Origin: Curtobacterium sp. MCBA15_009
GTDB taxonomy: Bacteria > Actinomycetota > Actinomycetes > Actinomycetales > Microbacteriaceae
Length of the DNA: 64,000 bases
Assembly (NCBI RefSeq): GCF_001864895.1
Contig: NZ_MJGO01000038.1
Location: 153,840 to 217,839, forward strand
Direction of reading: 5' to 3'
Numbering within the stretch: position 1 is the stretch's first letter; each line of letters opens with the position of its first letter. Below, one piece after another: positions 2,003-61,651 of the stretch. Position numbers and translations under genes: made by a program. A model generated the notes under the pieces. That model was not told the origin of the DNA. It made no database searches and worked only from the letters and a program-made list of their open reading frames with translations.

Positions 2003-3786
2003 ACGTCGCGGACGTACCGCTTCGCCCGGCGCAGGTCGGCCAGGTAGGCCTGGGCGTCGTCGTCGTCCCGACCCCGGCCGCGCCGGATGACGTCGAGCAG
2101 CGCCGCCTCGACATCCTTCGCCATGCGCGAGGCGTCGCCGCACACGTACACGGAGGCGCCCTCCTCGAGCCAGGCGAACAGCTCGTCGGCCTGCTCGCGC
2201 ATCCGGGTCTGCACGTAGACCTTCTCGGCCTGGTCGCGCGAGAACGCCAGGTCGAGCCGGGTGAGCACGCCCTGCTCGCGCAGGTCGGTGAGCTCGTCCT
2301 CGTAGACGAAGTCGGTCTCGCGGTGCTGGTCGCCGAAGAACAACCAGTTGCGTCCCGTGGCCCCGGCTGCGGCCCGCTCGTGCAGGAAGCCGCGGAACGG
2401 CGCGATGCCGGTGCCCGGGCCGATCATGACCATCGGCGCGGACGGGTCCGCCGGCACGCCGAACGACGCGTTCGGCTGCAGGTAGACGTCGACGGTGCCG
2501 CCCGGCGCGACCCGGTCGGCGAGGAACGTCGACGCGACACCGGCGTGCATCCGGTGCGGGTCGCCGTACCGGACGGAGGCCACGGTCAGGTGGACCCGAC
2601 CCGGGTGCGCCAGCGGGCTCGACGAGATCGAGTACTGGCGCGCCTGCAGCGGCCGCAGGTTCGGCAGCAGTTCGTCGAGGCCGGGTGCCGCCGACCCCGC
2701 GTCGCGGAGCAGGTCGAGCACGTCGCGTCCCCAGAGCCACCGGTCGAGCTCGTGCTTGTCGCCGTGTGCCACGACGGCCGCGAGCTCGCTCGACGGTGCG
2801 CGCTGCACCAGGTCGGCGATCAGGTCCTTCGACGGCGTCCGGACCTCGCGATCGGTCCGCAGGACCTCGGCGACCGGGAGCCCGTCGACCGTCTCGCCGC
2901 CGTTCGCACCGACCTGCTCGAGCAGTTCGGCGACGAACACCTCGTCGTTCACCGGGACGACCGCGAGCGCGTCGCCGGCGGCGTACTCGATGCCCGAGTC
3001 GCCGAGGTCGAACTCGTGGTGGCGGATCTCCTTCGCGCTGTGCGGCGCCGACAGCAGCCGGTTCTCCACCAGCGTCGCCGGGAACGGGTTGCGCTTGGTC
3101 CACTGCGCCCCCGGCCGGGAGGCCCGCCCCGCCCCCGCCCCGCCGGTCGCGGTCGCGCCGTCGCCGGCTCCACCGCCCGTGGTCGCTCCGGGGGTGCCCG
3201 TCACGCCGGCCTCGGCCGCCAGCCGGTCGAGCACCGCCGCGGACCACAGCGCGGCCGGGTCCTCGAAGTCGACGTCGCAGTCCACCCGGTCGTGGATGCG
3301 GGACGCGCCGAGCTGCTCGAGGCGGGTGTCGAGGAGCTTGCCGGCCTGGCAGAACTCGTCGTAGCTCGTGTCGCCGAGCCCGAGGACCGCGTACTGCAGC
3401 CCCTCGAGCCGCGGCACGGTGCTCGCCTGGAACGCGTCCCAGAACAGGCCGGCGTTGTCGGGCATCTCGCCCTCGCCGTAGGTCGAGGTGACGACGAGCA
3501 CGTGCGACATCCCGGCGAGCTGCTCGGGGGTGACGGCGTCGAGGGCGCTGGCCCGACCGCCGAGTCCGCGGGCCCTCGCGCCGGCGACGAGCTCGTCGGC
3601 CAGGAACTCGGCGTTGCCGGTCTGGGTGCCGAAGAGCACGTCGATCGTCGTCGTGGGCGCGTCGGGTGCGACCTTCTTGCCGGCGGCGGCGATGCCCGCG
3701 ATGAACCCGGCGAGCCAGGACTCCTGGGTGGCCGAGAACGGTGCGTCGACCGGGATGAGCGATCCGGTCGGGGGCAGGGTGCTCAC
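1996..3786 (-). CDS. CysJ-type NADPH diflavin reductase partnered with GltB-like protein
   Basis: This 596-residue protein starts at the GTG at 3786, which overlaps the stop of the GltB-like gene (GTGA). Residues 45-195 form a flavodoxin domain (FGTQTGNAEF, TSTYGEGEMPDN, GLGDTSYDEFC). A Gly/Ala-rich linker follows, then an FAD-binding FNR domain (RQYSISSSPL, VASTFLADRV) and an NADP-binding domain (GPGTGIAPFRG, SRDQAEKVYVQ, YVCGDASRMAKDV). It ends in RDVY, as CysJ proteins do. Known CysJ-type proteins move electrons from NADPH through FAD and FMN to a partner such as sulfite reductase hemoprotein. No sulfite or nitrite reductase gene is nearby. The coupling to the GltB-like gene suggests it feeds electrons to that FMN/Fe-S protein instead. 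The domain call is firm; the partner is inferred. Confidence 0.9.
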   Translation of the reverse strand: MSTLPPTGSLIPVDAPFSATQESWLAGFIAGIAAAGKKVAPDAPTTTIDVLFGTQTGNAEFLADELVAGARARGLGGRASALDAVTPEQLAGMSHVLVVTSTYGEGEMPDNAGLFWDAFQASTVPRLEGLQYAVLGLGDTSYDEFCQAGKLLDTRLEQLGASRIHDRVDCDVDFEDPAALWSAAVLDRLAAEAGVTGTPGATTGGGAGDGATATGGAGAGRASRPGAQWTKRNPFPATLVENRLLSAPHSAKEIRHHEFDLGDSGIEYAAGDALAVVPVNDEVFVAELLEQVGANGGETVDGLPVAEVLRTDREVRTPSKDLIADLVQRAPSSELAAVVAHGDKHELDRWLWGRDVLDLLRDAGSAAPGLDELLPNLRPLQARQYSISSSPLAHPGRVHLTVASVRYGDPHRMHAGVASTFLADRVAPGGTVDVYLQPNASFGVPADPSAPMVMIGPGTGIAPFRGFLHERAAAGATGRNWLFFGDQHRETDFVYEDELTDLREQGVLTRLDLAFSRDQAEKVYVQTRMREQADELFAWLEEGASVYVCGDASRMAKDVEAALLDVIRRGRGRDDDDAQAYLADLRRAKRYVRDVY

Positions 3787-6700
3787 GCGGTGACCGCCTC
3801 GGTCGGCGCCTGCGGTGCGCGGCGGGCGATGTCCTCGAGCGCCGCGGTCGCGAGCAGCTCGTCGAAGCGCGCGGCACGCAGCCGGCCGGCGTTCTTCGCG
3901 TTCTGGTGCATGATCCACCCCGTCGTGCCGGGCGCGTCCATGCTGCGGTTGTTCCGCTGCGTGAGGGCGCGCTTGGAGTCGTCGAGCCGCTTGACCGCGA
4001 TGAGCGTCGCGAGCTCGTCGTCGGCGAACCGGTCGAACGTGCCGCGCAGGTACTTCACGACGCGCTGCTTGACGGCGAAGTCCTCGGTCAGCACCAGGTT
4101 CCGCACCGCCTCGGTCACCCGCGGGTCACCGGCGCCGGCACCGGGCACCCGTTCCTGCGCCACGTCCTGGGCGACGCCGAGCACGGTGTACGACGCCAGG
4201 AGCGAGAACATGTCCTCGCCCTGGTCGCCGAGGGCGGGCGCGCGGCCGTCGAGCACGGTGCGCTGGTCGCGGTAGTCGACCTTGAAGGCGCGGAGCTTGT
4301 CCGTCGCGACGGAGGCCGCGAGTTCGTCGAGCAGCTCCGGTCGGGTCGCGGCGGCGAGGATCGCGTCCGCGTCCTGGCTGAGCAGGAGTGCCCGCGGCAT
4401 GCCGACGTACACGTGCCCGCGGGTGGTCGCCCACGCGAGGAGCAGCCGCTCGGCGAGGGCCGAGCCGGTCGCCTCGAGGTGCCACTCGAGCAGCAGGCGG
4501 GCGGCGTCCTCGTGGAACGCGCCGCGCTCCGTGTCGGTGACGGGGAACACCAGGAGCGAGTCCGTGCTGGCGCGCTCGGCGACCTGGCCGGTCGGGTCGT
4601 ACTGGTACAGGAACCCGCCGGACATGCCGTTGCCGAGGCCCTTGCCGAAAGCGCCGAGGTTGAACACGGCACCGCCGGTCATGTACTCGCAGCCGAAGTC
4701 GCCGACGCCCTCGACCACCGCGGTGGCCCCGGAGTTCCGGACGGCGAACCGGTCGCCGGCCTCGCCCTGCACGAAGGTGCGGCCGCCGGTCGCGCCGAAC
4801 AGCGCGAAGTTGCCGACGAGCACGTTGCCGCCCTGCTCGGCGCTGCCGCCGCCGGGCGCGCGGACGACGATCCGGCCCCCGCTCTGGCTCTTGCCGACGC
4901 CGTCGTTGGCGGTGCCGGTGTGCTCGAGCACGATGCCGTCGTTGGTGAAGACGCCGTACGACTGCCCGGCCGAGCCGTGCGTGCGGATCGTGACCGCGCC
5001 GTCGACGAGCCGGCGGCGGCCGCGGTCGTCGGTGGCGATCGCCGGACGGGCCGACAGGTCGACGTCGCGCAGCTCGTGGTTGAGCAGGCGCTCGACGTCG
5101 ATGCCGAGCTGGCCGCCGACCGACTTGTCCGCGTTGCCGAGGACCACGTCGTCGATCAGCACGGCGTGCTCGTGCCCGTCGACCAGCGCCGTCCGGACTC
5201 GCTCGATGAGCGCGTCGTCGGTGCGGTAGTCCTTCTCGAGGTACTCCGGGTCGGTGACGACCTTCTCGGGCACCTGGGCGAGCAGGGCACGGGCGTCGAG
5301 CCGGCCGACGCTCGCCGGGTGGTCGAGGAGCTGCAGCAGGTCGGTGCGCCCGCGGGCCTCGCGCAGGGAGCGCAGACCGAGACGGGCCAGGATCTGCCGC
5401 ACGTCGTGGGCGATGTTGAGCAGGTACTGCGCGAGCGCGCGGGGGTCGCCCTCGAACGCCTCGGCGTTCGTGGTGAGGCCCGCCGGGCACTGCACGTTGC
5501 AGTTCTTCGCCATCACGCAGCCGAGCATCATGAGCGCGGTGGTGCCGAACTCGAACGAGTCCCCGCCGAGCAGGGCGCTCGTGACGACGTCGCTGCCGGT
5601 CTGGTGCGCACCCGAGCAGCGGAGTGTGACCTTCTGGCGCAGGCCGTTCGCGACGAGGGCCTGGTGCACCTCGGCCACGCCGATCTCCGCGGAGCGTCCG
5701 GCGTACTTCAGGCTCGTGACGGCCGCGGCGCCGGTGCCGCCGGTGTTGCCGGCGACGTTGATGACGTCGGCGCCGGCCTTCGCGACGCCGACCGCGATGG
5801 TGCCGATGCCCTCGGACGACACGAGCTTCACGACCACCCGGACGCGGGCGGCCTTGCAGTCGTGGATGAGCTGCGCGAGGTCCTCGATCGAGTACGTGTC
5901 GTGGTGCGGCGGCGGCGAGATGAGCTCGACGCCGGGCGTCCCACCGCGGGCCGCGGCGATGTCCACCGTGACCTTGGGCGCGGGCAGCTGCCCGCCCTCG
6001 CCGGGCTTCGCGCCCTGGCCGATCTTGATCTCGAGCTCCTCGAGCATGGGGTCGGCGAGGTAGCCCGCCCAGATGCCGAACCGGCCCGAGGCGAACTGCT
6101 TGATGCGCGAGCCGCGGATCGTGCCGTAGCGGGAGTGGTGCTCGCCGCCCTCACCGCTGTTCGACATGCCGCCGACCATGTTCGTGCCGTGCGCGACGGC
6201 CTCGTGGGCGGTGGCGACGAGCGCACCGTGGCTCATCGCGCCGGACGCCAGGGTCCGGGTGATCTCGTGGGCCGGCTGGACCTCGTCGAGCTCGACGCTC
6301 GCCGGGGCGCTCTGCAGCAACGCGAGCAGCGCGACGGCCGCACCGGTGGCGCGGAGCGTCACCTGGGTGTCGTCGACGGCGTCGACGTCGATCTGCCCCG
6401 GGTGGAGCAGCGCGAGGCCGTCCGCGAGGGCCTGGTGGCGCAGTGCGCCCGTGGGTCCCGTCGACGTGAGCTCCAGGCAGAAGCGAGCCGTGCCTCCCGG
6501 GAGACCGTCGGGGGACGCCGGACGCGAGCCGGAGAGCCCGCGCACGGTGACGCTGGCGTTGCCGCTCGTCGAGAAGCGACCGAGCTCGCGGGCGAAGTCC
6601 TCTGCCGTGTCGATGCCGGTGACGTCCGCGGGCAGCGCGAGGACGTCGCGGAGCGCGGCGGGACGACGGGACCGCTCGTCGTGGGTCGTCTGCAGGAACG

Positions 6701-51618: not shown

Positions 51619-52485
51619 TCAGGACGCGAGCGCCTCGGGCTCGTGCCGCCACCAGTCGGCCAGCGACCCGTCGTACACCCGCACCCGGTCGTGCCCCAGC
51701 ACCGTCAGGGCGAGCGCGTCGACGCAGGCGGCGCTGCCGACCCCGCAGTAGGTGACGATCTCGTCGTCGCCGATCACGTCGGCGAACGCCCGCGCCAGGG
51801 CAGGCCCGCGCAGGTACGTGCCGGTGGTCGGGTCGAGCAGCGAGTCGGCCGCCACCGAGGTGCTGCCCGGCACGAGCGGCGGGTGGTCGTCGCCGAGCGC
51901 CGACGCGGGCGCCGCCAGCACCAGCGACGCGGGCTCGTCGCCGGACACGGCCCGCAGGACCCGGTCGCGGTCGGCCCAGAGCGGACGCTCCTGACCCGCC
52001 AGGAACGCGCGGTGCGGCAGGGCGGAGTCCGCCGGCGAGGTGTGGAGGGCACCGACCCGCACAGGGCGCCCCTCGTCACGCCACTTGGCGAACCCGCCGT
52101 CGAGGACCGCGACGGCGTCGAAGCCGAACGAGCGGAAGATCCACCAGAGCCGTGCGGACCACTCACCGCTCCCGTCGTCGTAGACCACGACGGTGGCGGT
52201 GTCGGTCACGCCGAGGGCTGCGGCGGCGGCCTCGAACCGGTCGGCGTCGGGTCGGGTGAAGGGGAGCTCGGCGTCCGGCGTCGAGAACGCTCGGATGAGG
52301 TCGGCGTACCGCGCTCCCGGTACGTGGCCACGCTGCTCGTGGGCGTCCCGCGCGCTGTGCCAGGTCGTCCCACGCCCGGCACCGTCCGTGTGCACCGAGG
52401 CGTCGAGCACGATGAGCTCGTCAGCACCGAGGTGGTCTGCGAGCCACTGCGTCGACACGAGCGGCGAGGTCAGGACGGGGGCCAT
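51619..52485 (-). CDS. sseA: Thiosulfate/3-mercaptopyruvate sulfurtransferase
   Basis: This 288-residue protein has two rhodanese domains. The first has the inactive-type loop VVYDDGSGEWSARLWW with RGHVPGARYAD. The second carries the active-site Cys247 in TYCGVGSAAC and ends YDGSLADWW. It transfers sulfur from thiosulfate or mercaptopyruvate to acceptors such as cyanide or thioredoxin. The loop CGVGSAA differs from the common CGSGVTA, so substrate preference is uncertain. TATGGT (52498-52493) ends 7 nt before ATG 52485, which decides the start against an ATG at 52497. Confidence 0.88.
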   Translation of the reverse strand: MAPVLTSPLVSTQWLADHLGADELIVLDASVHTDGAGRGTTWHSARDAHEQRGHVPGARYADLIRAFSTPDAELPFTRPDADRFEAAAAALGVTDTATVVVYDDGSGEWSARLWWIFRSFGFDAVAVLDGGFAKWRDEGRPVRVGALHTSPADSALPHRAFLAGQERPLWADRDRVLRAVSGDEPASLVLAAPASALGDDHPPLVPGSTSVAADSLLDPTTGTYLRGPALARAFADVIGDDEIVTYCGVGSAACVDALALTVLGHDRVRVYDGSLADWWRHEPEALAS

Positions 52486-52659
52486 GCCGCACACCATAAC
52501 TCCGACCCCTGACGGCTGCGAGGGGAACGGACACACGGCGCAACGGGGTGTCGGGACGGGCGCTTCGGTCGGTCGGTGCGCTCCCCCGTTCTGGTGCCAC
52601 CCCGGCCGGTTCGTGCTCGGTATGTTGGTTCCCCGGATCACCCGGGGGAGGGCCACCAC

Positions 52660-53712
52660 GTGAGCACGCGGGAACAGCACGTCGGATCAGGGACCGCGGA
52701 GGCCTTCGCGGACCGTCTGCAACGGCTGCGCCGCGCTGCCGGGGACCCGTCGTACGGGGACGTCGCCGCCCGGATCACCGCACGCCGAGTCGCCGTCGGG
52801 ACACCGGAGGCGGCGGCTCGCATCGCCCGGTCCACCGTGTACGACGTGTTCCGACCCGGGCGGACCCGACTGAACGTCAGCCTCGTCGGCGAGGTCGTCC
52901 GTGTCCTCGGCGTCGCGGACGGCGACGTCGAGGAGTGGCAGCGCGCGGCGCGCTCGCCGGTGGTCGCGCGTCCGGGGCCGGGACCCGCAGGACCCGTCCG
53001 ACCCGAGGTCGGTCCGGCTCCGTCCGCCCAGTCGGAGGCCGACGAGCGGCCGACCGGGAGGCCCGGGTCGGCTCGACTGACCAGCTCGGCCTCCGCGGTG
53101 GTCGCGTCGTCCCTGCGCCGGTGGCCGGACCGGTTCCGCCACGACCTCGACGCGGGTTCCGTCGTGCTGCTCGTCGCTGCCGCTGTCGGACTCGACCTCT
53201 TCGGCGCCAGCGTCTCCGAGCAGTTCCACCTGCCGATCTGGCTCGACACGATCGGCACCGCCGTCATCGCCCTCCGACTCGGCCCGTGGGCAGGCGCCGG
53301 GGTCGGTGCCGGGGCGGTGCTCCTCAACCAACTCGCCCACGGGCCCACCTCCTTCTGGTTCGCCCTCGTCGGCGTCGTGGCCGGTCTGCTCTGGGGTGCC
53401 GGCGGCCGGTTGCGGGGCCTGCAGCGGTCATCCTGGCGGTTGCTCGTGCTCGGCCTCGTGGTGGCCGTCGGGTGCACAGCGGTGGCGACGCCGGTCACCG
53501 TCCTCGCCTACCAGGCGTCGGTGACGCACGGTACCCAGGCGTACATCGACCTGCTGTCGGCAGCGGGCGACGGTCCGTGGGTCGCCGTCGCCCTGGCGAA
53601 CCTCGGAGCGTCTGTCCTCGACAAGGTCCTGACCACCTTCGTGGCGTTCGCGTTGCTCGTGCTGCTCGAGCGACGGATGACGCGCGCACAGGAGACTCCG
53701 CTCCCGGACTGA
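52660..53712 (+). CDS. HTH protein fused to an ECF-S-like membrane domain
   Basis: This 350-residue protein starts with GTG after GGGGGAGGG (52644-52652). Residues 1-100 look like the N-terminal DNA-binding part of actinobacterial XRE-type regulators (FADRLQRLRRAAGDPSYGDVA, STVYDVFRPGRTRLNVSLVGEVVRVLG). A Pro-rich linker follows. From about residue 165 there are five to six helices containing PIWLDTIGTAVIALRLGPWAG, a pattern I know from substrate-binding S components of ECF vitamin transporters. I do not know this fusion. It could be a membrane-bound regulator sensing a vitamin-like ligand. It lies 74 bp upstream of the NERD/AAA operon on the same strand. Confidence 0.8.
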   Translation: MSTREQHVGSGTAEAFADRLQRLRRAAGDPSYGDVAARITARRVAVGTPEAAARIARSTVYDVFRPGRTRLNVSLVGEVVRVLGVADGDVEEWQRAARSPVVARPGPGPAGPVRPEVGPAPSAQSEADERPTGRPGSARLTSSASAVVASSLRRWPDRFRHDLDAGSVVLLVAAAVGLDLFGASVSEQFHLPIWLDTIGTAVIALRLGPWAGAGVGAGAVLLNQLAHGPTSFWFALVGVVAGLLWGAGGRLRGLQRSSWRLLVLGLVVAVGCTAVATPVTVLAYQASVTHGTQAYIDLLSAAGDGPWVAVALANLGASVLDKVLTTFVAFALLVLLERRMTRAQETPLPD

Positions 53713-53728
53713 AGCGCTGTCCGGGTTT

Positions 53729-53779
53729 GTGCGGACAGCGGTCCGGACACCGGTCCGGACACGTCCGCACACCTACGGT
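53729..53779 (+). promoter_or_regulatory. Promoter region of the NERD/AAA operon with nested repeats
   Basis: TACGGT (53774-53779) ends 7 nt before the GTG of the small membrane protein, fitting a leaderless promoter. Upstream, GTGCGGAC (53729-53736) and GTCCGCAC (53763-53770) are inverted, and CGGTCCGGACA is repeated at 53739-53749 and 53751-53761. The repeats cover the expected -35 and so may be a repressor or activator site. Confidence 0.5.
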
Positions 53780-53786
53780 CGGCGGT

Positions 53787-53963
53787 GTGAACCAGCTCCT
53801 CTCCACGACGGCCTCGGCGGTCGCGCTCGTCGGCGGCATCGTGCTCTTCGTCGCGCTCTTCACGCCGCGACGGTTCCGGGCGCGTCGTCCGGCCCGTTTC
53901 GGGATCGGCTTCGGCCTGCTCGGGGTCTCCGCCGTCCTCTGGACGGTGGCGGGGCGGAGCTGA
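53787..53963 (+). CDS. Small two-helix membrane protein
   Basis: This 58-residue protein has two hydrophobic helices (STTASAVALVGGIVLFVALF and ARFGIGFGLLGVSAVLWTVA) joined by a basic loop (TPRRFRARRP), predicting a hairpin in the membrane with the loop inside. No family is recognised. It is the first gene of an operon with the NERD protein, 26 bp upstream of it. The GTG start is set by TACGGT 7 nt upstream. Confidence 0.6.
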   Translation: MNQLLSTTASAVALVGGIVLFVALFTPRRFRARRPARFGIGFGLLGVSAVLWTVAGRS

Positions 53964-53989
53964 CGGTGCGCTCGACGAGAGGAACGAAG

Positions 53990-55393
53990 ATGAGCGGTCC
54001 GCTGGAGACCCGACGGCGGAGGTTCGCGCGTACCGCGGACATCCTGGTGGTGGTGCTGACGATCCTGAACGGTCTGAGCTGGGTGGTGGGCGGCCTGACT
54101 TCCCCCGCATGGTTCGCCGTGGTCCTCGGCCTGGCACTCGCCGGCCGGGTGACGCGAGACCACTTCCGGCCCCGGTCGGGCGTGCTCGGCACCATCGTGG
54201 CCGTCACCGCGCTCGCCACCGCGGTCCTCGGCGGGATCGTCACGGCGTCGTCGTCGCCCGTCGCCGGCCACGTGCTTCCTGTGCACCTGCTGTGGTCGCT
54301 CGTGATCGTCGCCGCGACGATCGCTCGCCCGGTCGTCGCGACGAGCATCCGGACCGGCGCCGCCGCCGACACGGCCAACCGCATCCGTGCCGCCGAGGAA
54401 GAGCGGATCCGGTCCAACCGTGAACGGGAACTCGACCACGTCGCCCGCGTCGAACGCGACCGCAAGTGGGCAGCGCGGCCGTCGGGTGACGGCGAGCGCA
54501 CCGGGTACGAACCGAGCGAGCTGGTCGACGTCGAGATCGGGCCGAACGCCTGGATGTACGGGGAGCCCGGTGCCGGCCTCGGTGGGTCCGGCTTCGACGC
54601 GCGCGCGATCGAGCGCGGGCGTGAGGGAGAGGTCAACTTCGCGAAGGTCCTCGAGCAGCGCGGCCTGCTCGGACGCTTCGCGACGTTCTGGTCCGTGCAC
54701 ATGCCGGACGAGGGCGTCGGAGCGAGCAAGCAGTTCCAGACCGACATCGACTGCGTGGTGGTCACCGGCTCCTCGATCTGGCTCGTCGACGTGAAGAACT
54801 ACGACCAGGGCGGCGTGCGCTGGACCGTCGAACGTGAGGACCCCCAAGGCCGTTCCTCGGCACCGACGCTCATCGCGATCGACCTGCAGACCGAGGGCGC
54901 GGTCGGGCACCCGCGCAAGATGTCCGGGAACATGAAGCTCGCCCGCGAGCGTTTCGGCCTCAAGATGCGCAACCTCGGCATCCGGACGATGGTGAAGCCC
55001 GTCGTCGTCATGATGCCGCGGGACGACGGCCTCGGCCGGATCCAGGACGTCGCGTGGCCGGGGGACATCCCCGCGGCCGGCCTGCCGGACCTCCTGCGCT
55101 GGCTCGAGGACGAGCCGGACTTCGTCCCCTCCGACGAGAACGCGAGGCTCCTCGTCCCGATCCTGTCGGCGCTGCTCAAGGACGAGAGCGGCTCCGCGCC
55201 GGTCGTCGGAGAGCGCCGGCGTCCGTCGCCCGCGGCGACACCGACCCGCACCGTGTCGACCGCCCGTGCCACAGCCACACGACCGGCGACGGCGCCGAGC
55301 ACGACCGAGGACGCCGGGTCGCGCAGTTGCTCCTCGTGCGGAGCGACCGTGACCGCGGAGATGGGCTTCTGCGAAGCGTGCGGGGCGGCGTGA
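53990..55393 (+). CDS. Membrane-anchored NERD-domain protein with C-terminal zinc ribbon
   Basis: This 467-residue protein has about four helices in the first 125 residues and a charged helical linker (RIRAAEEERIRSNRERELDHV). Residues 205-390 form a NERD (nuclease-related) domain: GREGEVNFAKVL (Glu212, Glu214), TDIDCVVV (Asp252, Asp254) and WLVDVKNYD (Asp267, Lys269). These are compatible with a PD-(D/E)xK active site. A Thr/Ala/Pro-rich linker leads to a zinc ribbon, CSSCGA and CEACGA, at the end. GAGAGGAA precedes the ATG. Its stop overlaps the next start (GTGA). Nuclease activity is inferred, not known. Confidence 0.82.
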   Translation: MSGPLETRRRRFARTADILVVVLTILNGLSWVVGGLTSPAWFAVVLGLALAGRVTRDHFRPRSGVLGTIVAVTALATAVLGGIVTASSSPVAGHVLPVHLLWSLVIVAATIARPVVATSIRTGAAADTANRIRAAEEERIRSNRERELDHVARVERDRKWAARPSGDGERTGYEPSELVDVEIGPNAWMYGEPGAGLGGSGFDARAIERGREGEVNFAKVLEQRGLLGRFATFWSVHMPDEGVGASKQFQTDIDCVVVTGSSIWLVDVKNYDQGGVRWTVEREDPQGRSSAPTLIAIDLQTEGAVGHPRKMSGNMKLARERFGLKMRNLGIRTMVKPVVVMMPRDDGLGRIQDVAWPGDIPAAGLPDLLRWLEDEPDFVPSDENARLLVPILSALLKDESGSAPVVGERRRPSPAATPTRTVSTARATATRPATAPSTTEDAGSRSCSSCGATVTAEMGFCEACGAA

Positions 55394-56100
55394 CCACCTG
55401 GTTGCTCGAGGTCGAGGTCGACGACCTCCGGGCCGCACTCGCGCACGTCGCCCCGTTCGCAGCGGCTGCGAACCCGTCCCCCTGGGACCGCATCCGCATG
55501 CACGTGCTGTTCGAGGGCGGCGTGGCGGACCTGCACCTGCTCGCCGGGTCGGACCGGAACCTCGCCGACGGAGCGATCGCACACGTGAGCGGGCGGACGC
55601 TCCGCGAACGGGACGACCGCGTGTTCTTCGGGACCGATCTGGTCCGTTCGGTCAGTGTGTCGTTGCCCTCGAGCGGCCTCGTGCAGATCGGCGTCGACCC
55701 GGGCGCGGTCTCCGTCCGCCACGTCGCGGACGGAGCGGTGGTCAGCACGTCGGCGGTCGTCGCGCGGATCAGCGTCGGGTGCTTCCCGACAGGAGCGGGG
55801 TGGCGGACCCTCGTCCCTGCTTCGCGCTGGACCAGGGGCGGACGAGCAGAGGTGTTCGAGGTGTTCGAGGACGACTACAGCTCGGAGCTGGTCGAAGCTG
55901 CGCCGACCGCGGTGGTGGTCGCCCCGGTGACGGGTCCGTCGACGACCGACACCGCACCCGGCGCGCCGGCGCCGACGCCCGCGAAGGCCAGGCCGGTCGT
56001 GATGCCGTCCCTCCCCGCGCCCGCAGCCGACCCCGCGCCGCGACGGACGCCCGTGCCGGCTCGTCGGACGGGTCACCTGTCAGCGGACGGCCGACGGTGA
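55390..56100 (+). CDS. Unrecognised protein with a possible sliding-clamp-like domain
   Basis: This 236-residue protein starts at a GTG overlapping the NERD gene's stop, and its own stop overlaps the GTG of the AAA gene. Residues 1-150 have alternating strands: WLLEVEVDDLRAALAHVAPFA, DLHLLAGSDRNLADGAIAHV, LVRSVSVSLPSSGLVQIGVD. This order (helix-forming first strand, xLxxxxxD strand, then LP segment) recalls one domain of a DnaN-type clamp. Residues 165-236 are Pro/Ala/Thr/Arg-rich and probably disordered. No family name can be given; the clamp likeness is my inference. Confidence 0.7.
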   Translation: MTTWLLEVEVDDLRAALAHVAPFAAAANPSPWDRIRMHVLFEGGVADLHLLAGSDRNLADGAIAHVSGRTLRERDDRVFFGTDLVRSVSVSLPSSGLVQIGVDPGAVSVRHVADGAVVSTSAVVARISVGCFPTGAGWRTLVPASRWTRGGRAEVFEVFEDDYSSELVEAAPTAVVVAPVTGPSTTDTAPGAPAPTPAKARPVVMPSLPAPAADPAPRRTPVPARRTGHLSADGRR

Positions 56101-59100
56101 GCGTCGGACGGATCAGGGACGTCGAGCAGGTCCTCCGGCTCACGGTCGGTGCCCTCCGCCGTGCCGTCGCCAGGACCGACGGGTTCCGAACCTCCGACGG
56201 CTCGGGTGTGCTGGACGGCGTTGGCCTGTGGGTCGACGAGGGCACTCGTGTCCAGCTGATCGCGTCGGACGGCGTGCACGTCGCCCTCGAACCGGTCCTC
56301 GACGCGGTCCCGATCCTGACGACCTGGCTGACGTTGCCGCCGAGCTTCGTGGTCGAGCTCACCGGCCACTTCGGCGACGACGACGAGGTGTCCATCGGGC
56401 TCGGCTGGGGCGAGGACGGTCGGCAGGTCGTCGTCCAGGGCGCCGCCGACGAGCCGGTGCTCCACCAGGCGATGTGGACGTCGCCGCGTCTGCTGGAGCA
56501 CCTCAAGGGCTCGTACGCGTTCTTCGGCGACGGGGAGGCGAGTCTGGTGACCGTCGACCGGAACGCGTTCATGAAGACCCTCGTGACCGCTGAGGCCGTC
56601 GAACCGTCATCGATCGTCACCCTCGCCCTCGCGCCCGAACGCGTCCTCGTCCGGGGCGCCGCCGGGTTGCTCGGCGATCCCGTGGCGGGGATCCTCGCCG
56701 GCCGACCCCGCCGGCTGCACGTGCCCGTCGAGCGGCTCCGTGCAGCGGTGCGCTTCGTCTGTTGGACCGCCGAACAGCGGTACGACGCCGTGGCGCTGCA
56801 GGTCTCGGGCGACGGATCGCGCGTGCGACTCTGGGGGACGGACGCCGACGGTGCGTCGGACGGTCCTGAGTGCTTCGTGCGGACGAGCTCCGACGAAGCC
56901 GGTGCTTCGCTCCGACGGATCGCTCGCGACGAACAGGCGGCTGGCCGGGAGGAGGCCGAGCCGGACGACGGGCTCGAGGTGCTCTCACCGCTCCCGCCGG
57001 CACAGGGGCCCGAAGCCGTCGCCGCCGTGCTCGCGGAGCTGGACGCGATCGTCGGGCAGGCCCAGCTCAAGGCGCAGGTGCGCAACGTCGTCGCGCAGGC
57101 GGAGCTCGTGCAGCTCCGCAGGGAGAAGGGCTTCCACGGCGAGCTGACCGCCGGACACCTGCTGTTCGTCGGGCCTCCCGGGACCGGGAAGACCACCATC
57201 GGCCGACTGATCGCCCGGCTCTACCACGCGCTCGGGTTCCTGCCCACGGACACCCTCGTCGAGGTCGACCGTGCAGCCCTCGTCGCAGCGCACGTCGGCG
57301 GCACCGAGGAACGCACGACCGCCGCTGTGGAGCGGGCGATGGGCGGCGTCCTGCTCGTGGACGAGGCGTACGCCCTCACCAGCGGCGGCGAGAACGACTT
57401 CGGCCGACAGGCGCTGGACACCCTGCTCAAGGCGCTCGAGGACCGCCGCGGGTCGTTCGTCTGCATCGCCGCCGGCTACCCGGCCGAGATGGACGCCTTC
57501 ACCGCGGCGAACCCGGGCATCGCCTCGCGGTTCCCGCAGCGCATCGAGTTCACCCCGTACTCCGCGGACGAGCTCGTCGCGATCGCCGTGCAGATGGCGT
57601 CGGACTCCGGTGCCGTCCTCACCCACGAGGCGGTCGAGCGGCTCGGGCTCCGACTCCGCGAAGCCGAGGTCTCCGGTCGCTTCGCGGAACGCACGTGGGG
57701 CAACGCGAGGACGGTGCGGACCGTGGTCGACCGAGCGGCCGCCGCTCGGGACGCCCGCCTCAGCGCGCTGCTCGCCGGTGCGCCCGGACTCGGGGGCGAC
57801 ACCATCGACGGAGCCGCCCTCGTCGAGATCCGGGAAGAGGACATCGTCGTCGCGTGCGACGACCAAGGTGTCGGCCGTCCGTCGGCCCCGACCGAGGACG
57901 TCGAGACCGTGCTCGCGGAACTGCGCGCCCAGATCGGGCAGGACCAGGTCGCCCGGCAGGTCGAGTCGCTCGTCGCCAACGCCCGCGCGGCTCGTGCGGC
58001 GGCCGATCGTGACGAACGTGCGACGGTGCCGGACATCCCGCACCTGCTCTTCACCGGTCCGCCCGGCACCGGCAAGACCACGATCGCCCGGCTCATCGCG
58101 CGCCTGTACCGTGCGCTCGGGCTCCTGCCGGGTGGCACCGTCGTCGAGGTTGACCGTGGCGACCTCGTCGCCGGGTTCGTGGGACAGACCGCGACGAAGA
58201 CGACCGAACGGATCGACGAGGCGATGGGCGGCGTGCTCTTCGTGGACGAGGCGTACGCACTCACGGCCGGAGGCGACGCCTTCGGGCGGGAAGCCGTCGA
58301 CACGCTGCTCAAGCGGATGGAGGACGACCGCGGCCGGTTCCTCGTCATCGCCGCCGGGTACCCGGAGCCGATGAGGGACTTCCTGCGGTCGAACCCAGGA
58401 CTCGCCCGGCGCTTCCCGACGACCGTCGAGTTCCGGTCGTACTCGGCCGAGCAGCTCGCCGAGATCGCGACCTCGATGGCGGCGGCGAGGAACGAACGGT
58501 TCACGGAGGACGCCGCACAGGTGCTCCGCGCCCGGTTGTCGGGGGCCGAGCGCGCCGGCCTGTTCGCCCGGGCCGACTGGGGGAACGCCGGAGCCGTCCG
58601 GAACCTCGTCGACGAGGCGGTCCGGGTCCGCAACACCCGCGTGTTCGCCGACGATCGCACCCCGCCGGTCGGTGCCGGCCTCGACGAGCTCGACGCGTCG
58701 GACGTCGAGGCGGCGTGCAGGTCGGTCCTGGCGGACGACGGGCCGGCCGTCGAAGCGGTGGGGGACGTCCTGGCGGAACTCGGCGCACAGATCGGGCAGC
58801 CCGGGGTCAAGGTCCAGGTCGAGTCACTGATGGCCGGGGTCCGCGCCCAGCAGGCGCGTCTCGCCCGGGGCATGTCGACCGGGCAGTCCCTGGTCGAGCA
58901 CCTGGTGTTCACCGGCCCGCCCGGGACCGGCAAGACGACGATCGCCCGGCTGCTCGCGCGGCTGTACCGCGCACTCGGCGTCCTGCCGTCCGGACACGTC
59001 GTCGAGGTCGACGCCGCGGGACTCGTCGCGGGCTACGTCGGTCAGACGGCGACGAAGACGGAGGAACGCATCGCGGAGGCCCGGGGCGGCGTGCTGTTCA

Positions 59101-59621
59101 TCGACGAGGCGTACACGCTCGCCGGCGACCGGGACAGGAGCTTCGGGCAGGAGGCGATCGACACGCTGCTCGCTCGCATGGAGAACGACCGGGGAGCCTT
59201 CATGGTGATCGTCGCCGGGTACCCCGACGAGATGGCCGGGTTCCTGCGTTCCAACCCCGGACTCCCGTCGCGCTTCACCCAGACGATCGCGTTCCGCCCG
59301 TACTCGTCCGACGACCTCGTCGGGATCGCGGAGCACATGGCGGTCGGAGCGCACGAACAGGTCACCGAGGACGCTCGCGAGCTGCTGTTGCGCCGTCTGA
59401 CGGCAGCGGAGGCGGCCGGACGGTTCTCCGACCGGGAGTGGGGCAACGGGCGTGCGGTGCGGAACATCCTCGACGACGCCGTGCGTGCCCGGGACCTGCG
59501 GTTGTTCGCGGATCCGTCGTCCGAGCCGACGTCGGACGAGATGGTGACGATCGAGGCCGTGGACATGACCGTCGCCGCCGACGCTGCTGCGCTCCCGGCC
59601 GGGGTCCCAGCAGCCTCCTGA
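56097..59621 (+). CDS. Clamp-like N-terminus fused to three CbxX/CfxQ-type AAA+ modules
   Basis: This is a 1174-residue protein. Residues 1-270 look like two clamp-type domains (VLRLTVGALRRAVARTDGF, VQLIASDGVHVAL; RLHVPVERLRAAVRFV, DAVALQVSGDGSRVRLWG). Three tandem AAA+ modules of the CbxX/CfxQ/SpoVK class follow. Their Walker A motifs GPPGTGKT start at residues 359, 654 and 940, and the Walker B motifs are VLLVDEAYAL, VLFVDEAYAL and VLFIDEAYTL. Arginine-finger strands NPGxxxRF are present in each, so all three appear active. Each module opens with a leader such as VLAELxAxIGQ. CbxX proteins remodel other proteins (Rubisco activase in one case). It is the last gene of the operon. Its role is unknown. 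Confidence 0.85.
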   Translation: MSVGRIRDVEQVLRLTVGALRRAVARTDGFRTSDGSGVLDGVGLWVDEGTRVQLIASDGVHVALEPVLDAVPILTTWLTLPPSFVVELTGHFGDDDEVSIGLGWGEDGRQVVVQGAADEPVLHQAMWTSPRLLEHLKGSYAFFGDGEASLVTVDRNAFMKTLVTAEAVEPSSIVTLALAPERVLVRGAAGLLGDPVAGILAGRPRRLHVPVERLRAAVRFVCWTAEQRYDAVALQVSGDGSRVRLWGTDADGASDGPECFVRTSSDEAGASLRRIARDEQAAGREEAEPDDGLEVLSPLPPAQGPEAVAAVLAELDAIVGQAQLKAQVRNVVAQAELVQLRREKGFHGELTAGHLLFVGPPGTGKTTIGRLIARLYHALGFLPTDTLVEVDRAALVAAHVGGTEERTTAAVERAMGGVLLVDEAYALTSGGENDFGRQALDTLLKALEDRRGSFVCIAAGYPAEMDAFTAANPGIASRFPQRIEFTPYSADELVAIAVQMASDSGAVLTHEAVERLGLRLREAEVSGRFAERTWGNARTVRTVVDRAAAARDARLSALLAGAPGLGGDTIDGAALVEIREEDIVVACDDQGVGRPSAPTEDVETVLAELRAQIGQDQVARQVESLVANARAARAAADRDERATVPDIPHLLFTGPPGTGKTTIARLIARLYRALGLLPGGTVVEVDRGDLVAGFVGQTATKTTERIDEAMGGVLFVDEAYALTAGGDAFGREAVDTLLKRMEDDRGRFLVIAAGYPEPMRDFLRSNPGLARRFPTTVEFRSYSAEQLAEIATSMAAARNERFTEDAAQVLRARLSGAERAGLFARADWGNAGAVRNLVDEAVRVRNTRVFADDRTPPVGAGLDELDASDVEAACRSVLADDGPAVEAVGDVLAELGAQIGQPGVKVQVESLMAGVRAQQARLARGMSTGQSLVEHLVFTGPPGTGKTTIARLLARLYRALGVLPSGHVVEVDAAGLVAGYVGQTATKTEERIAEARGGVLFIDEAYTLAGDRDRSFGQEAIDTLLARMENDRGAFMVIVAGYPDEMAGFLRSNPGLPSRFTQTIAFRPYSSDDLVGIAEHMAVGAHEQVTEDARELLLRRLTAAEAAGRFSDREWGNGRAVRNILDDAVRARDLRLFADPSSEPTSDEMVTIEAVDMTVAADAAALPAGVPAAS

Positions 59622-59723
59622 CCGAGCGGGCGAGCGGGTAGGCGGGGCAGTGGGGCAGCGTCGGGCCCTGGCCTCGGGAGCGCGCGGCGCGGGGTCCGCG
59701 ACAGGACACGCGTCGATCGACAC

Positions 59724-59820
59724 GTGGTTCGTCGGATCATGCACGCACAGAGGTTGCGCGCGCGTATTCCGTCGGACCACCTGTCGTTCGACCGGTGGTT
59801 CGTCGCACCATGCGCAGGCA
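59724..59820. repeat. Direct and inverted repeats in the space after the AAA gene
   Basis: GTGGTTCGTCGGATCATGCA (from 59724) recurs as GTGGTTCGTCGCACCATGCG (from 59795), and an inverted relative occurs at 59756-59780. CGTCGGACCACC (59770-59781) pairs with GGTGGTTCGTCG (59794-59805) at 10 of 12. The 327-bp space 59622-59948 lies between convergent genes and holds nothing else I can see. Confidence 0.65.
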
Positions 59821-59948
59821 TGCGCCCGGCCGCCCCGCCGCCCACCGCCCCGCGTCACGGCCCGCCGCCCCACTGCCCGCCGCACGCACGACGGCCCGCC
59901 CCGGTCTCCCGGGACGGGCCGTCGCAATCGTGCTGCGGTGGATCGGCG

Positions 59949-61490
59949 TCAGTGAGCCGCGGCGGGGATGCTCCCGGTCGTGGCGGACCCGGCGCGGGCG
60001 AGCCGCTCGAGTCGCACGGACTGCCGGTTGATGAGCAGGCCACCCGCGAGGGCGACGAGCACCAGCACACCGGCCGAGATCCCGAAGGCCACGTGGTAGC
60101 CGTCGAGCACGGCCTGGGCCTGCTGCAGCTTCGTCGGGGCCGCGTTCAGCCCGGACAGGCTGTTCGCGACGACGTCGGCGAAGATCGTCGAGAGCAGCGC
60201 CGTGCCGATCGAGCCGCCGATCTGCTGCATCGTGTTGACCGTGGCAGAGGCGACGCCGGCGTCGGCGCGGGCGACCCCCGTCGTCGCGGTGTTCATCGCG
60301 GACGAGAAGATCGTGCCCATGCCGAGGCCGATCACGATGAGCGCCGGCAGGACGGTGCCCGCGTAGGAGCTGTCGAGGTCGGTGCGGAGCAGCAGGAGCA
60401 GCCCCGTCGCGGCGACCAGGCCGCCGGCGAAGATGAGCACCTTCGGGCCGACGCGCGGCAGCAGGCGGCCGCCGATCTGCGTCGCCGAGATCATGATCGA
60501 CGCGGGCATCGGCAGGAACGCGAGACCGGTCTGCAGCGAGCTGAACCCGAGGGTCTGCTCGAGGTAGTAGGTCAGGAACAGGAAGATGCCGAACATGCCG
60601 ATCGCGACGAGGCCGATGGCGATGAACGAGCCGCCGCGGTCGCGGTCGAGCACGACGCGCAGGGGGAGCAGCGGGTGGGCGACCCGGGTCTCGATGAGCA
60701 CGAAGGCCGCGATCAGCAGGACACCGCCGGCGAGCATGACGATGGTGAGCGGAGCGTCCCAGCCGTTGGTCTCGGCGTTCGAGAAGCCGTAGACGACGCC
60801 GACCAGGCCGAGGGTGATGGTGAAGACGCCGGCGACGTCGATGCGGGGACGCTCGACCTTCGGCGGGCGCTCCATGAAGACGAGGGCGCCGATCACGCCG
60901 AGGACGGCGAAGACGACGTTGACGTAGAGGCACCAGCGCCAGGACGCGTACTCGGTCAGGACACCGCCGAGCAGCAGGCCGATGGCCGCACCCGAACCGG
61001 CGATCGAGCCGAAGATGCCGAACGCGCGGCCGCGTTCCTTCGGGTCGCGGAAGGTCGTGGTGAGCATGCCGAGCGCCGACGGGGCGAGCAGCGCGCCGAA
61101 CACGCCCTGCAGCGCGCGGGCGGCGACGAGCAGGCCGAACGAGTCGGCGAGGCCGCCGAGCACGGAGGCGAGCGCGAACCCGACGAGGCCGATGATGAAC
61201 GTGTTCTTGCGTCCGAACAGGTCGCCGAGGCGTCCGCCGAGCAGCAGGAGCGACCCGAAGGCCAGCGAGTAGGCGGTGACGATCCACTGCCGCTGGTCGG
61301 TGCCGAAGTCGAGGTCGGCCTGGGCCGAGGGGAGCGCGATGTTCACGATCGTCGCGTCGAGCACGACCATGAGCTGGGCGAGGGCGATGACCGCCAGGGC
61401 GATCCAGCGGCGGCTGCTCTTGGCGGGGGTGGTGCCCGGAGTCGTGGGTGCTGCCCCGGTGGGGGTCGGCATGGTCTGTTCTGCCGTCAC
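59949..61490 (-). CDS. MFS drug-type exporter (DHA2, 14-TM)
   Basis: This 513-residue protein has 14 predicted helices. Motif A is GGRLGDLFGRKNTFIIG, and motif D1-like VVLDATIVNIALPSAQADL follows the first helix, as in EmrB/QacA-type drug:H+ antiporters. The GTG at 61490 is preceded by GGAGG five bases upstream; an ATG at 61505 lacks a site. It is divergent from a TetR gene with palindromic sites between, the usual arrangement for an inducible efflux pump. The substrate is unknown. Confidence 0.9.
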   Translation of the reverse strand: MTAEQTMPTPTGAAPTTPGTTPAKSSRRWIALAVIALAQLMVVLDATIVNIALPSAQADLDFGTDQRQWIVTAYSLAFGSLLLLGGRLGDLFGRKNTFIIGLVGFALASVLGGLADSFGLLVAARALQGVFGALLAPSALGMLTTTFRDPKERGRAFGIFGSIAGSGAAIGLLLGGVLTEYASWRWCLYVNVVFAVLGVIGALVFMERPPKVERPRIDVAGVFTITLGLVGVVYGFSNAETNGWDAPLTIVMLAGGVLLIAAFVLIETRVAHPLLPLRVVLDRDRGGSFIAIGLVAIGMFGIFLFLTYYLEQTLGFSSLQTGLAFLPMPASIMISATQIGGRLLPRVGPKVLIFAGGLVAATGLLLLLRTDLDSSYAGTVLPALIVIGLGMGTIFSSAMNTATTGVARADAGVASATVNTMQQIGGSIGTALLSTIFADVVANSLSGLNAAPTKLQQAQAVLDGYHVAFGISAGVLVLVALAGGLLINRQSVRLERLARAGSATTGSIPAAAH

Positions 61491-61568
61491 GGCAGCCTCC
61501 TTCATGAAGGTTGGAGGGGGACTCGGAGCGCGCACCGTCGGGCACTCCGAAAGGAGAGGGGTCGAACC

Positions 61569-61651
61569 GGATGCACTGCATCCGCTTGTGGCCAGTGTAG
61601 ACCGAAACGGAGGAACCGCATCCACTTGTTCCCAGATAGTTCAACTAGGTT
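61569..61651. promoter_or_regulatory. Operators and promoters of the MFS/TetR divergent pair
   Basis: GGATGCACTGCATCC (61569-61583) is a perfect palindrome. GCATCCGCTTGTGGCCAG (61578-61595) is repeated as GCATCCACTTGTTCCCAG (61618-61635), 40 bp apart. TACACT on the minus strand (61602-61597) is a likely -10 for the exporter. TAGGTT (61646-61651) ends 7 nt before the TetR GTG. Confidence 0.6.

What the first reader, a model, noticed from the sequence alone, without database searches (positions are those of the whole stretch)
53729..59621. Candidate undescribed system: NERD nuclease-domain protein, small clamp-like protein and triple CbxX AAA+ protein in one coupled operon
Four genes run head to tail: a two-helix membrane protein, a membrane-anchored NERD protein with zinc ribbon, a 236-residue protein, and a 1174-residue clamp-like/AAA+ fusion. 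The last three overlap by GTGA, so fixed stoichiometry is likely. A nuclease-type domain plus a large remodelling ATPase is a combination seen in defence and DNA-quality-control systems. Here it is membrane-tethered, and the clamp-like domains suggest DNA or nucleoprotein binding. I recognise the parts but not the whole.
Basis: partly seen in the sequence, partly recalled or inferred. Interest (0 to 1): 0.85.

Follow-up and report, generated by a model that had tools for sequence, protein, structure and literature searches.

The report
Mobile nuclease, clamp-fold and ATPase cassette
A rare five-gene block, inserted between two ordinary genes in an actinobacterium, encodes a membrane-bound protein of DNA-cutting type together with domains shaped like ring-type "sliding clamps" joined to a motor ATPase; it looks like an undescribed machine, perhaps against foreign DNA, but no function has been tested.

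Summary
In detail: four head-to-tail genes (58, 467, 236, 1174 aa), the last three joined by GTGA overlaps. A fifth gene upstream, H (52660-53712), belongs with them. The block is an accessory cassette of about 7.2 kb: in 29 of 29 sibling loci examined its two flanking genes lie together without it, and it occurs in 2 of 66 genomes of the genus. The NERD domain is real and keeps its E/D/DxK residues; the three AAA+ modules belong to the CbbX/SpoVK/EccA clade and have intact motifs. The clamp-like idea has no significant sequence support, but low-confidence AlphaFold2 models match sliding clamps (D 147-266: Z 13.3, 2.4 A over 109 residues; C 1-135: Z 8.5, though Foldseek alone was weak for C). 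NERD, clamp-like and AAA+ genes recur in the same order in Brachybacterium (3 of 47 genomes of its family); NERD relatives without the other two also exist (2 of 7 genomes). No known defence system was recognised, so defence remains inference. Best reading: a membrane-tethered nuclease controlled by a clamp-bearing CbbX-type ATPase, acting on invading DNA (0.4).

The parts
52562..59716 (.). inserted cassette, approximate limits; absent between the same two core genes in sibling genomes
   Evidence: in 6 siblings compared, DNA similarity stops between 52543 and 52561 and resumes at 59717 in one and at 59860-59960 in five; MFS and rhodanese genes adjacent in 29 of 29 sibling loci
52660..53712 (+). 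gene H: 350 aa, weak N-terminal helix-turn-helix and C-terminal ECF-transporter-S-like membrane part; candidate regulator or sensor of the cassette
   Evidence: all Pfam matches below cut-off; 33% identical to a gene near the NERD relative in L007
53787..53963 (+). gene A: 58 aa, two hydrophobic helices, GTG start
   Evidence: 97% identical in L010
53990..55393 (+). gene B: 467 aa membrane protein with NERD domain (residues 209-280 matched) and C-terminal zinc ribbon (447-466)
   Evidence: E214, D254, D267, K269 invariant in 4 relatives; hydrophobic segments
55390..56100 (+). gene C: 236 aa; residues 1 to about 140 clamp-fold domain by prediction, rest a Pro/Ala/Thr-rich tail
   Evidence: model (pLDDT 38); Z 8.5 to sliding clamps; weak; GTGA overlap with B
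56097..59621 (+). gene D: 1174 aa; clamp-fold N-terminus (residues 1-276, by prediction) and three CbbX/SpoVK-type AAA+ modules
   Evidence: GTGA overlap with C
56532..56894 (+). D residues 146-266: best-supported clamp domain, aligns with DnaN domain 3
   Evidence: Z 13.3, rmsd 2.4 over 109 residues; part of this domain homologous to C of Brachybacterium (0 of 2000 shuffles)
57171..57194 (+). Walker A of AAA 1 (D residues 359-366)
58056..58079 (+). Walker A of AAA 2 (D residues 654-661)
58914..58937 (+). Walker A of AAA 3 (D residues 940-947)
51619..52494 (-). flanking core gene: rhodanese-like sulfurtransferase (name by eye; not part of the cassette)
   Evidence: 39 of 40 genus genomes
59949..61625 (-). 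flanking core gene: MFS-type transporter (name by eye; not part of the cassette)
   Evidence: next to the rhodanese gene in 29 of 29 sibling loci

Best explanation
H-A-B-C-D is one horizontally acquired accessory cassette that most likely makes a membrane-tethered, ATP-driven DNA-handling machine against invading DNA. Shown by sequence: the gene set, its insertion between core genes, repeated coupling of B, C and D, an intact NERD (PD-(D/E)xK-type) signature and three intact AAA+ modules of the CbbX/SpoVK/EccA clade. Shown only by low-confidence predicted folds: C carries one sliding-clamp-type domain and the N-terminus of D carries at least one more, probably two. Inferred: C and D together build a clamp-type ring stacked on an AAA+ ring. 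The clamp part recruits the substrate, as N-terminal domains are thought to do in other CbbX-clade chaperones, here DNA or a replication complex. ATP-driven remodelling then hands the DNA to, or switches on, the NERD domain at the membrane. H is inferred to be the regulator or membrane sensor.
For: Empty site in 29 of 29 sibling loci. Presence in 2 of 66 genomes, each for the D 1-296 probe and for H. dS 0.26-0.35 for B, C and D (0.145 for the short A) against 0.035-0.063 in five flanking genes; dN/dS 0.18-0.38 for B, C and D, so the genes are under constraint and the cassette has a history unlike its flanks. B-C-D order with 4-base overlaps in Brachybacterium (3 of 47 genomes). NERD above cut-off, catalytic-type residues invariant in 4 rows. 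D model: the 50 Foldseek matches shown are all sliding clamps or complexes with one, E 8e-6 to 1.2e-4; Z 13.3 over residues 147-266. C model: ranks 1-22 of the second alignment are all clamps, then Z drops to 4.5 and below. Intact ATPase motifs. Variable N-terminal domains proposed to recruit substrates across the clade: PMC10659427 (passages). NERD domains occur in known defence systems: Mokosh I, Nhi-like (PMC10952713, passage), PglW of type-2 BREX (PMC12839542, passages).
Against: No defence-family match for A, B, C or H, and no recognised defence system among the neighbours scanned (one helicase-like gene near L009 with weak partial matches). B relatives stand alone in L007 and G448, so B can work without C and D. 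AlphaFold2 confidence is low (pLDDT 41 and 38), and the tools warn that matches of such models can be meaningless and that Z below 8 can be a common arrangement. Foldseek gave no match at E 0.001 for C. Sequence tests for DnaN likeness are not significant. The clamp-like regions are acidic overall (pI 5.9 and 5.0), whereas DNA-encircling clamps need a positive inner face (recalled). Characterised members of the AAA+ clade remodel proteins, not DNA (PMC10659427, passages). No phage, viral-contig or plasmid relative of the set was found with the probes used (B, D, the D N-terminus, Brachybacterium C; window C was not searched there).
Confidence: 0.4

Rival explanations
1. A membrane or envelope assembly machine: D is a dedicated CbbX/EccA-type chaperone for a membrane partner, B is a membrane scaffold whose NERD domain is not used to cut DNA, and C and the N-terminus of D are adaptors.
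For: Characterised members of this AAA+ clade act on dedicated protein targets (RuBisCO, type VII secretion substrates, MurG; PMC10659427, passages). NCBIfam places D closest to SpoVK/EccA/CbbX. Three cassette proteins (H, A, B) have hydrophobic membrane-type segments.
Against: NERD active-site-type residues are invariant in all four aligned relatives; the fold hits are to sliding clamps; I saw no secretion gene in the cassette or directly beside it (gene list read by eye).
Confidence: 0.25
2. A DNA repair or replication quality-control accessory: the clamp-fold ring docks on replication forks, D strips or remodels stalled complexes, and B trims DNA at the membrane.
For: Predicted clamp fold with a nuclease-type domain and a remodelling ATPase.
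Against: Present in only 2 of 66 genomes of the genus, inserted as a block with a foreign divergence pattern; the B profile matches no genome but its own among 396 sampled across the phylum. Quality-control genes are usually kept more widely. The genome's own dnaN is elsewhere.
Confidence: 0.15
3. An addiction or abortive-infection pair: the membrane NERD protein is a toxic nuclease held inactive by C and D and released when the cell is invaded or loses the cassette.
For: Tight coupling of B to C and D; cassette-like presence/absence.
Against: B relatives occur without C and D in L007 and G448, so no antidote is obligatory.
Confidence: 0.15
4. The clamp resemblance is a false lead from shallow models; C and the N-terminus of D are unrelated beta-alpha domains, and the unit is an ordinary AAA+ chaperone beside a NERD gene (this overlaps with the first rival).
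For: pLDDT 41 and 38; DnaN-profile scores of C 1-145, D 1-130 and D 126-276 were reached by 123, 20 and 35 of 1000 shuffles; no Foldseek match under E 0.001 for C.
Against: Two different proteins modelled independently both put clamps on top in structural alignment; the D domain is homologous to part of the Brachybacterium C protein of the same operon.
Confidence: 0.15

Closest known systems
CbbX / SpoVK / EccA clade of AAA+ chaperones
   Same: D scores highest in these families (best solved relatives EccA1 9lur and CbbX), with a variable N-terminal domain as elsewhere in the clade (PMC10659427, passages)
   Different: Three AAA modules in one chain; N-terminus with predicted clamp fold; coupled to a membrane NERD protein
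Bacterial sliding clamp DnaN (and PCNA)
   Same: Predicted fold of C 1-135 and D 147-266
   Different: Split over two genes, no significant DnaN sequence match, fused to an AAA+ protein that is not a clamp loader; the genome has its own dnaN
NERD-domain proteins (PF08378), including NERD parts of known defence systems (PglW of type-2 BREX, Mokosh type I)
   Same: NERD domain with conserved E/D/DxK residues
   Different: Here on a membrane-anchored chain of its own with a zinc ribbon; no kinase domain found
ATPase plus effector defence systems such as IetAS
   Same: AAA+ gene coupled to a second effector-type gene; AAA-level match of D to IetA models
   Different: Match is to the general AAA core only; the partner here is a NERD membrane protein, not a protease (IetS recalled)

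Membership tests
NERD nuclease-related domain (PF08378) | profile match above curated cut-off | tested here: met
   32.6 bits against 22.1
NERD nuclease-related domain (PF08378) | PD-(D/E)xK-type acidic/lysine residues (motif recalled) | tested here: met
   E214, D254, D267, K269 invariant in 4 relatives
NERD nuclease-related domain (PF08378) | nuclease activity | not testable with these tools
   needs purified protein
CbbX/SpoVK/EccA AAA+ clade | AAA core with AAA_lid_6 | tested here: met
   3 copies, all above cut-off
EccA of type VII secretion | single AAA module next to ecc genes | tested here: not met
   three AAA modules; no ecc gene noticed by eye among the window genes; a true EccA beside eccB/eccC is L111
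DnaN sliding clamp | Pfam beta-clamp domains by sequence | tested here: not met
   no beta-clamp match for the D N-terminus, for C of L010 or for Brachybacterium C up to E 10, nor for window C up to E 1; DnaN profile not significant
DnaN sliding clamp | clamp fold | tested here: inconclusive
   strong fold matches but models at pLDDT 41 and 38
DnaN sliding clamp | three domains in one chain | tested here: not met
   C is a separate gene; the D N-terminus before the AAA modules has room for two
Clamp loader AAA+ (DnaX/RFC) | clamp-loader profile above cut-off | tested here: not met
   dnaX 49 bits against 250, RFC small subunit 64 against 303
Known anti-phage system (PADLOC-DB 2.0.0) | specific match of components | tested here: not met
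   A, B, C, H: none; D: AAA/P-loop-level matches only, best IetA 79 bits
Defence-island gene set | known defence genes nearby | tested here: inconclusive
   flanks are core genes in the genus; only one other window gene and three L009 neighbours were scanned with PADLOC, one of them a helicase-like gene with weak partial matches
Accessory cassette | presence/absence between conserved neighbours | tested here: met
   29 of 29 sibling loci empty

The most novel reading that the evidence does not exclude
A new class of machine: a six-domain sliding-clamp-type ring permanently joined to a six-module CbbX-type AAA+ ring and tethered to a membrane nuclease. The domain counts fit: in the window cassette C plus D carry about 3 clamp domains and 3 AAA modules (two copies give 6 and 6); in Brachybacterium C has room for 2 clamp domains (one supported by homology, one unassigned) and D has 2 AAA modules (three copies give 6 and 6). 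The two AAA sets appear to have been duplicated separately. The ring would load itself on incoming DNA and feed it to the NERD nuclease at the membrane, so that a clamp would serve destruction rather than copying of DNA.
Probability: 0.15. Interest if true: 0.92.

Novelty: new variant of a known kind. Interest (0 to 1): 0.62.

Why it matters
If the clamp fold is confirmed, this is a sliding-clamp-type assembly joined to an ATPase outside the clamp-loader family and tied to a membrane nuclease, an arrangement that none of my library or paper searches showed. It would extend the CbbX/SpoVK clade from protein chaperones to DNA-linked work and give a compact, movable cassette to test for defence against phages or plasmids. 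The empty-site comparison makes clean gene-removal tests possible.

Tried and rejected
Sequence tests of the clamp idea failed. Pfam gave no beta-clamp match (to E 10; to E 1 for window C). hhalign of small alignments to 18 DnaN sequences gave E 0.14-0.69. DnaN-profile scores were compared with 1000 shuffles each: C 1-145 reached by 123, D 1-130 by 20, D 126-276 by 35, the joined C+D piece by 95, Brachybacterium C 41-168 by 21, its residues 169-292 not reported at all; negative controls were reached by 729 (C tail), 168 (Brachybacterium D N-terminus) and 467 (part of B). D 1-130 and D 126-276 both align to the domain-2 part of the profile. I therefore rest the claim on predicted folds alone. 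Foldseek for C gave no match at E 0.001 or better (0 of 587); only the second aligner put clamps on top. Smith-Waterman tests were significant for one pair of pieces only (D 126-276 with L008 C 169-292, 0 of 2000 shuffles); ten other pairs were not, so the N-terminal half of the Brachybacterium C protein is unassigned.

Hits of C in G023 and G109 were rejected: they fall in an unrelated 739-aa gene and in a dnaX-like gene. Distant NERD proteins on 7 Bifidobacterium and Arthrobacter plasmid records show no C- or D-type gene in the annotation of the three regions looked at; those of G333/G423 and the closer one of G448 have no C or D match nearby by tblastn. H relatives elsewhere in the family (23 of 249 genomes) lie among ordinary genes in the 8 loci examined by eye, so H is not specific to this cassette. 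Viral-contig scans gave nothing for B, for Brachybacterium C or for the D N-terminus; phage records gave nothing for B and AAA-only matches for D; plasmids gave AAA-only or no matches for D and its N-terminus and chance matches for Brachybacterium C. Window C was not searched in those collections. T7SS membership was considered and rejected.

Errors of mine: (fifth protein), and the H rows used H in a wrong reading frame; H was redone correctly. Searches were failed scripts; one search is the working version.
Full report
What is there. On the + strand, five genes follow each other: H 52660-53712 (350 aa), A 53787-53963 (58 aa), B 53990-55393 (467 aa), C 55390-56100 (236 aa) and D 56097-59621 (1174 aa). 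B/C and C/D overlap by the four bases GTGA. The pattern scan found no consensus promoter in 52300-60200 and two terminator-like sites, of which the only one on the + strand lies before H (52605-52621); both counts are near the shuffled expectation, so they say little.

The proteins. B has three hydrophobic segments within residues 15-113, a NERD domain above Pfam's cut-off (32.6 against 22.1 bits) and a C-terminal CxxC-CxxC ribbon that stays below cut-off. In an alignment of four relatives E214, D254, D267 and K269 are invariant; their catalytic role is from recalled knowledge of PD-(D/E)xK nucleases. D has three AAA modules, each with Walker A, Walker B, an arginine-finger SRF/RRF and a WGN sensor-2 stretch. 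Its best families are SpoVK, EccA and CbbX (the scores are summed over three copies) and its best solved relatives EccA1 and CbbX. Its three lids are the only AAA_lid_6 matches in the genome at E 0.001. H has weak helix-turn-helix and ECF-S-like matches, all below cut-off.

The clamp-like parts. Neither Pfam nor a DnaN profile built from 18 DnaN sequences significantly recognises C or the N-terminus of D. AlphaFold2 with only 4 and 2 aligned sequences gave low-confidence models (pLDDT 41 and 38), and the tools warn that matches of such models may be meaningless. Even so, the 50 PDB matches shown for the D model are all sliding clamps or complexes with one (237 matches at E 0.001 or better). 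Structural alignment puts D 147-266 on domain 3 of DnaN with Z up to 13.3, 2.4 A over 109 residues. For C, Foldseek was weak (best clamp E 0.41, no match under 0.001), but in the second alignment ranks 1-22 are clamps (Z 8.5 down to 6.0) and the first non-clamp is at Z 4.5; by the tool's note a Z under 8 alone can be a common arrangement. The first 130 residues of D are supported as a third clamp domain only by a motif at the matching place of the DnaN profile (VLDGVGLWVDEGTRVQLIASDGVHVAL; 20 of 1000 shuffles score as well) and by the length of the Foldseek alignments shown (239-307 columns). I treat the clamp fold as likely, and DnaN ancestry as unproven.

An inserted cassette. In the genus, the rhodanese-like gene that flanks the block was found in 39 of 40 genomes; loci were returned for 30, one of them the window's own. 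In all 29 other loci this gene lies beside the MFS-type gene that flanks the block on the other side; 9 further genomes with the gene were not looked at. In six siblings compared in detail, DNA similarity ends between window positions 52543 and 52561 and resumes at 59717 in one and at 59860-59960 in five. I saw no integrase or transposase gene within these limits (gene list read by eye). A D 1-296 probe finds 2 of 66 genomes, and H finds the same 2 of 66. Between those two genomes of one species, B, C and D differ at synonymous sites by 0.26-0.35 (A, only 58 codons, by 0.145), while five flanking genes differ by 0.035-0.063; dN/dS for B, C and D is 0.18-0.38. So the cassette has its own history and is under purifying selection. 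H is 78-79% identical between the two.

Relatives elsewhere. A profile of B finds 5 of 396 genomes in the order and 1 of 396 (its own) in the phylum at E 1e-10; two of the five hold only distant NERD proteins. One scan of named genomes gave Microbacterium L007 and Brachybacterium L008 and L009. Seven genomes thus hold a close relative of B: the window's, G179, L007, L008, L009, G499 and G448. In five of them C and D genes follow. In Brachybacterium L008, B/C overlap at 3596-3599 and C/D at 4471-4474 if D starts at its first ATG (my gene caller preferred a start at 4504). There C has 292 aa and D has 890-893 aa with two AAA modules. L009 has frameshifts in B and C. In 47 genomes of that family 3 have this C protein; two of the three appear to be L008 and L009 again. 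In L007 and G448 B stands without C and D. In L007 an H relative lies close to B, divergent and with one 110-aa gene between (33% identity, E 2e-37). This links H to B in a second place, although H relatives in 8 other loci stand among ordinary genes.

How the two D types relate. The C-terminal clamp domain of window D is homologous to the second half of Brachybacterium C (Smith-Waterman 79, 0 of 2000 shuffles; ten other pairs of pieces not significant). A tree of 22 AAA modules groups the window's modules with one another and the Brachybacterium modules with one another; holding both sets in one clade is disfavoured (p-AU 0.025). The test group was chosen after the tree was seen, and the sampling is small (10 outside rows; Methylobacterium L114 dropped out because no frame was found). 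It suggests that the ATPase was duplicated, perhaps recruited, separately in the two lineages. The domain counts, 3 clamp (one weakly supported) to 3 AAA and 2 (one unassigned) to 2 AAA, both divide six; this is the basis of the novel case and is inference.

Mechanism. I think it most likely that C and D form a clamp-bearing AAA+ assembly that recruits DNA or a replication complex and controls the membrane NERD nuclease, as a barrier to invading DNA. Ring assembly, DNA binding, cleavage and defence are all inferred. Against it stand the lack of a recognised defence neighbour among the few genes scanned (a helicase-like gene about 5.5 kb from B in L009 has weak partial matches, best E 2e-6, and a ResIII match), solitary B genes, the overall acidity of the clamp-like parts, and the protein-directed work of the characterised members of the AAA clade (PMC10659427, passages read). 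NERD domains do occur in defence systems (PMC10952713; PMC12458937; PMC12839542; passages only).

Novelty. My paper searches (listings and abstract openings seen, passages read in five papers) showed no clamp-CbbX fusion and no NERD-clamp-AAA operon. The library holds open-licence papers only and each listing shows the best 7 to 15, so this is not proof of absence. I file the cassette as a new variant of the broad kind 'coupled ATPase and nuclease-type accessory cassette' and keep the clamp-ring machine as the bolder reading.

Noticed in passing
L023 5461-11964 (G333): A distant NERD protein (617 aa with a C-terminal P-loop-like stretch) sits beside a 553-aa zinc-ribbon GTPase-like protein and, further on, a 356-aa protein with a J-domain-like start: another NERD gene cluster of unknown function (domain names by eye).
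   Followed up: no
L009 7779-10239: B and C of Brachybacterium sp. Z12 are frameshifted, either decay of the cassette or assembly error; the apparently same genome G1082 is listed as 85% complete.
   Followed up: no
loci L083-L096 and L101-L108: H-type proteins (weak helix-turn-helix plus ECF-S-like membrane part) recur in 23 of 249 genomes of the family, up to 4 matched stretches per genome, among ordinary genes: a little-described family of putative membrane-bound regulators.
   Followed up: partly
L109 1061-4405, L110 824-4132: Streptomyces plasmid proteins annotated as beta-helix repeat proteins carry two CbbX-type AAA modules and lie next to S8 peptidase genes in two different plasmids, a possible further partner set of this AAA clade.
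   Followed up: no
L112 1880-5804: A single-AAA CbbX-type gene is separated by one small gene from a NACHT-domain gene on a Streptomyces avidinii plasmid.
   Followed up: no
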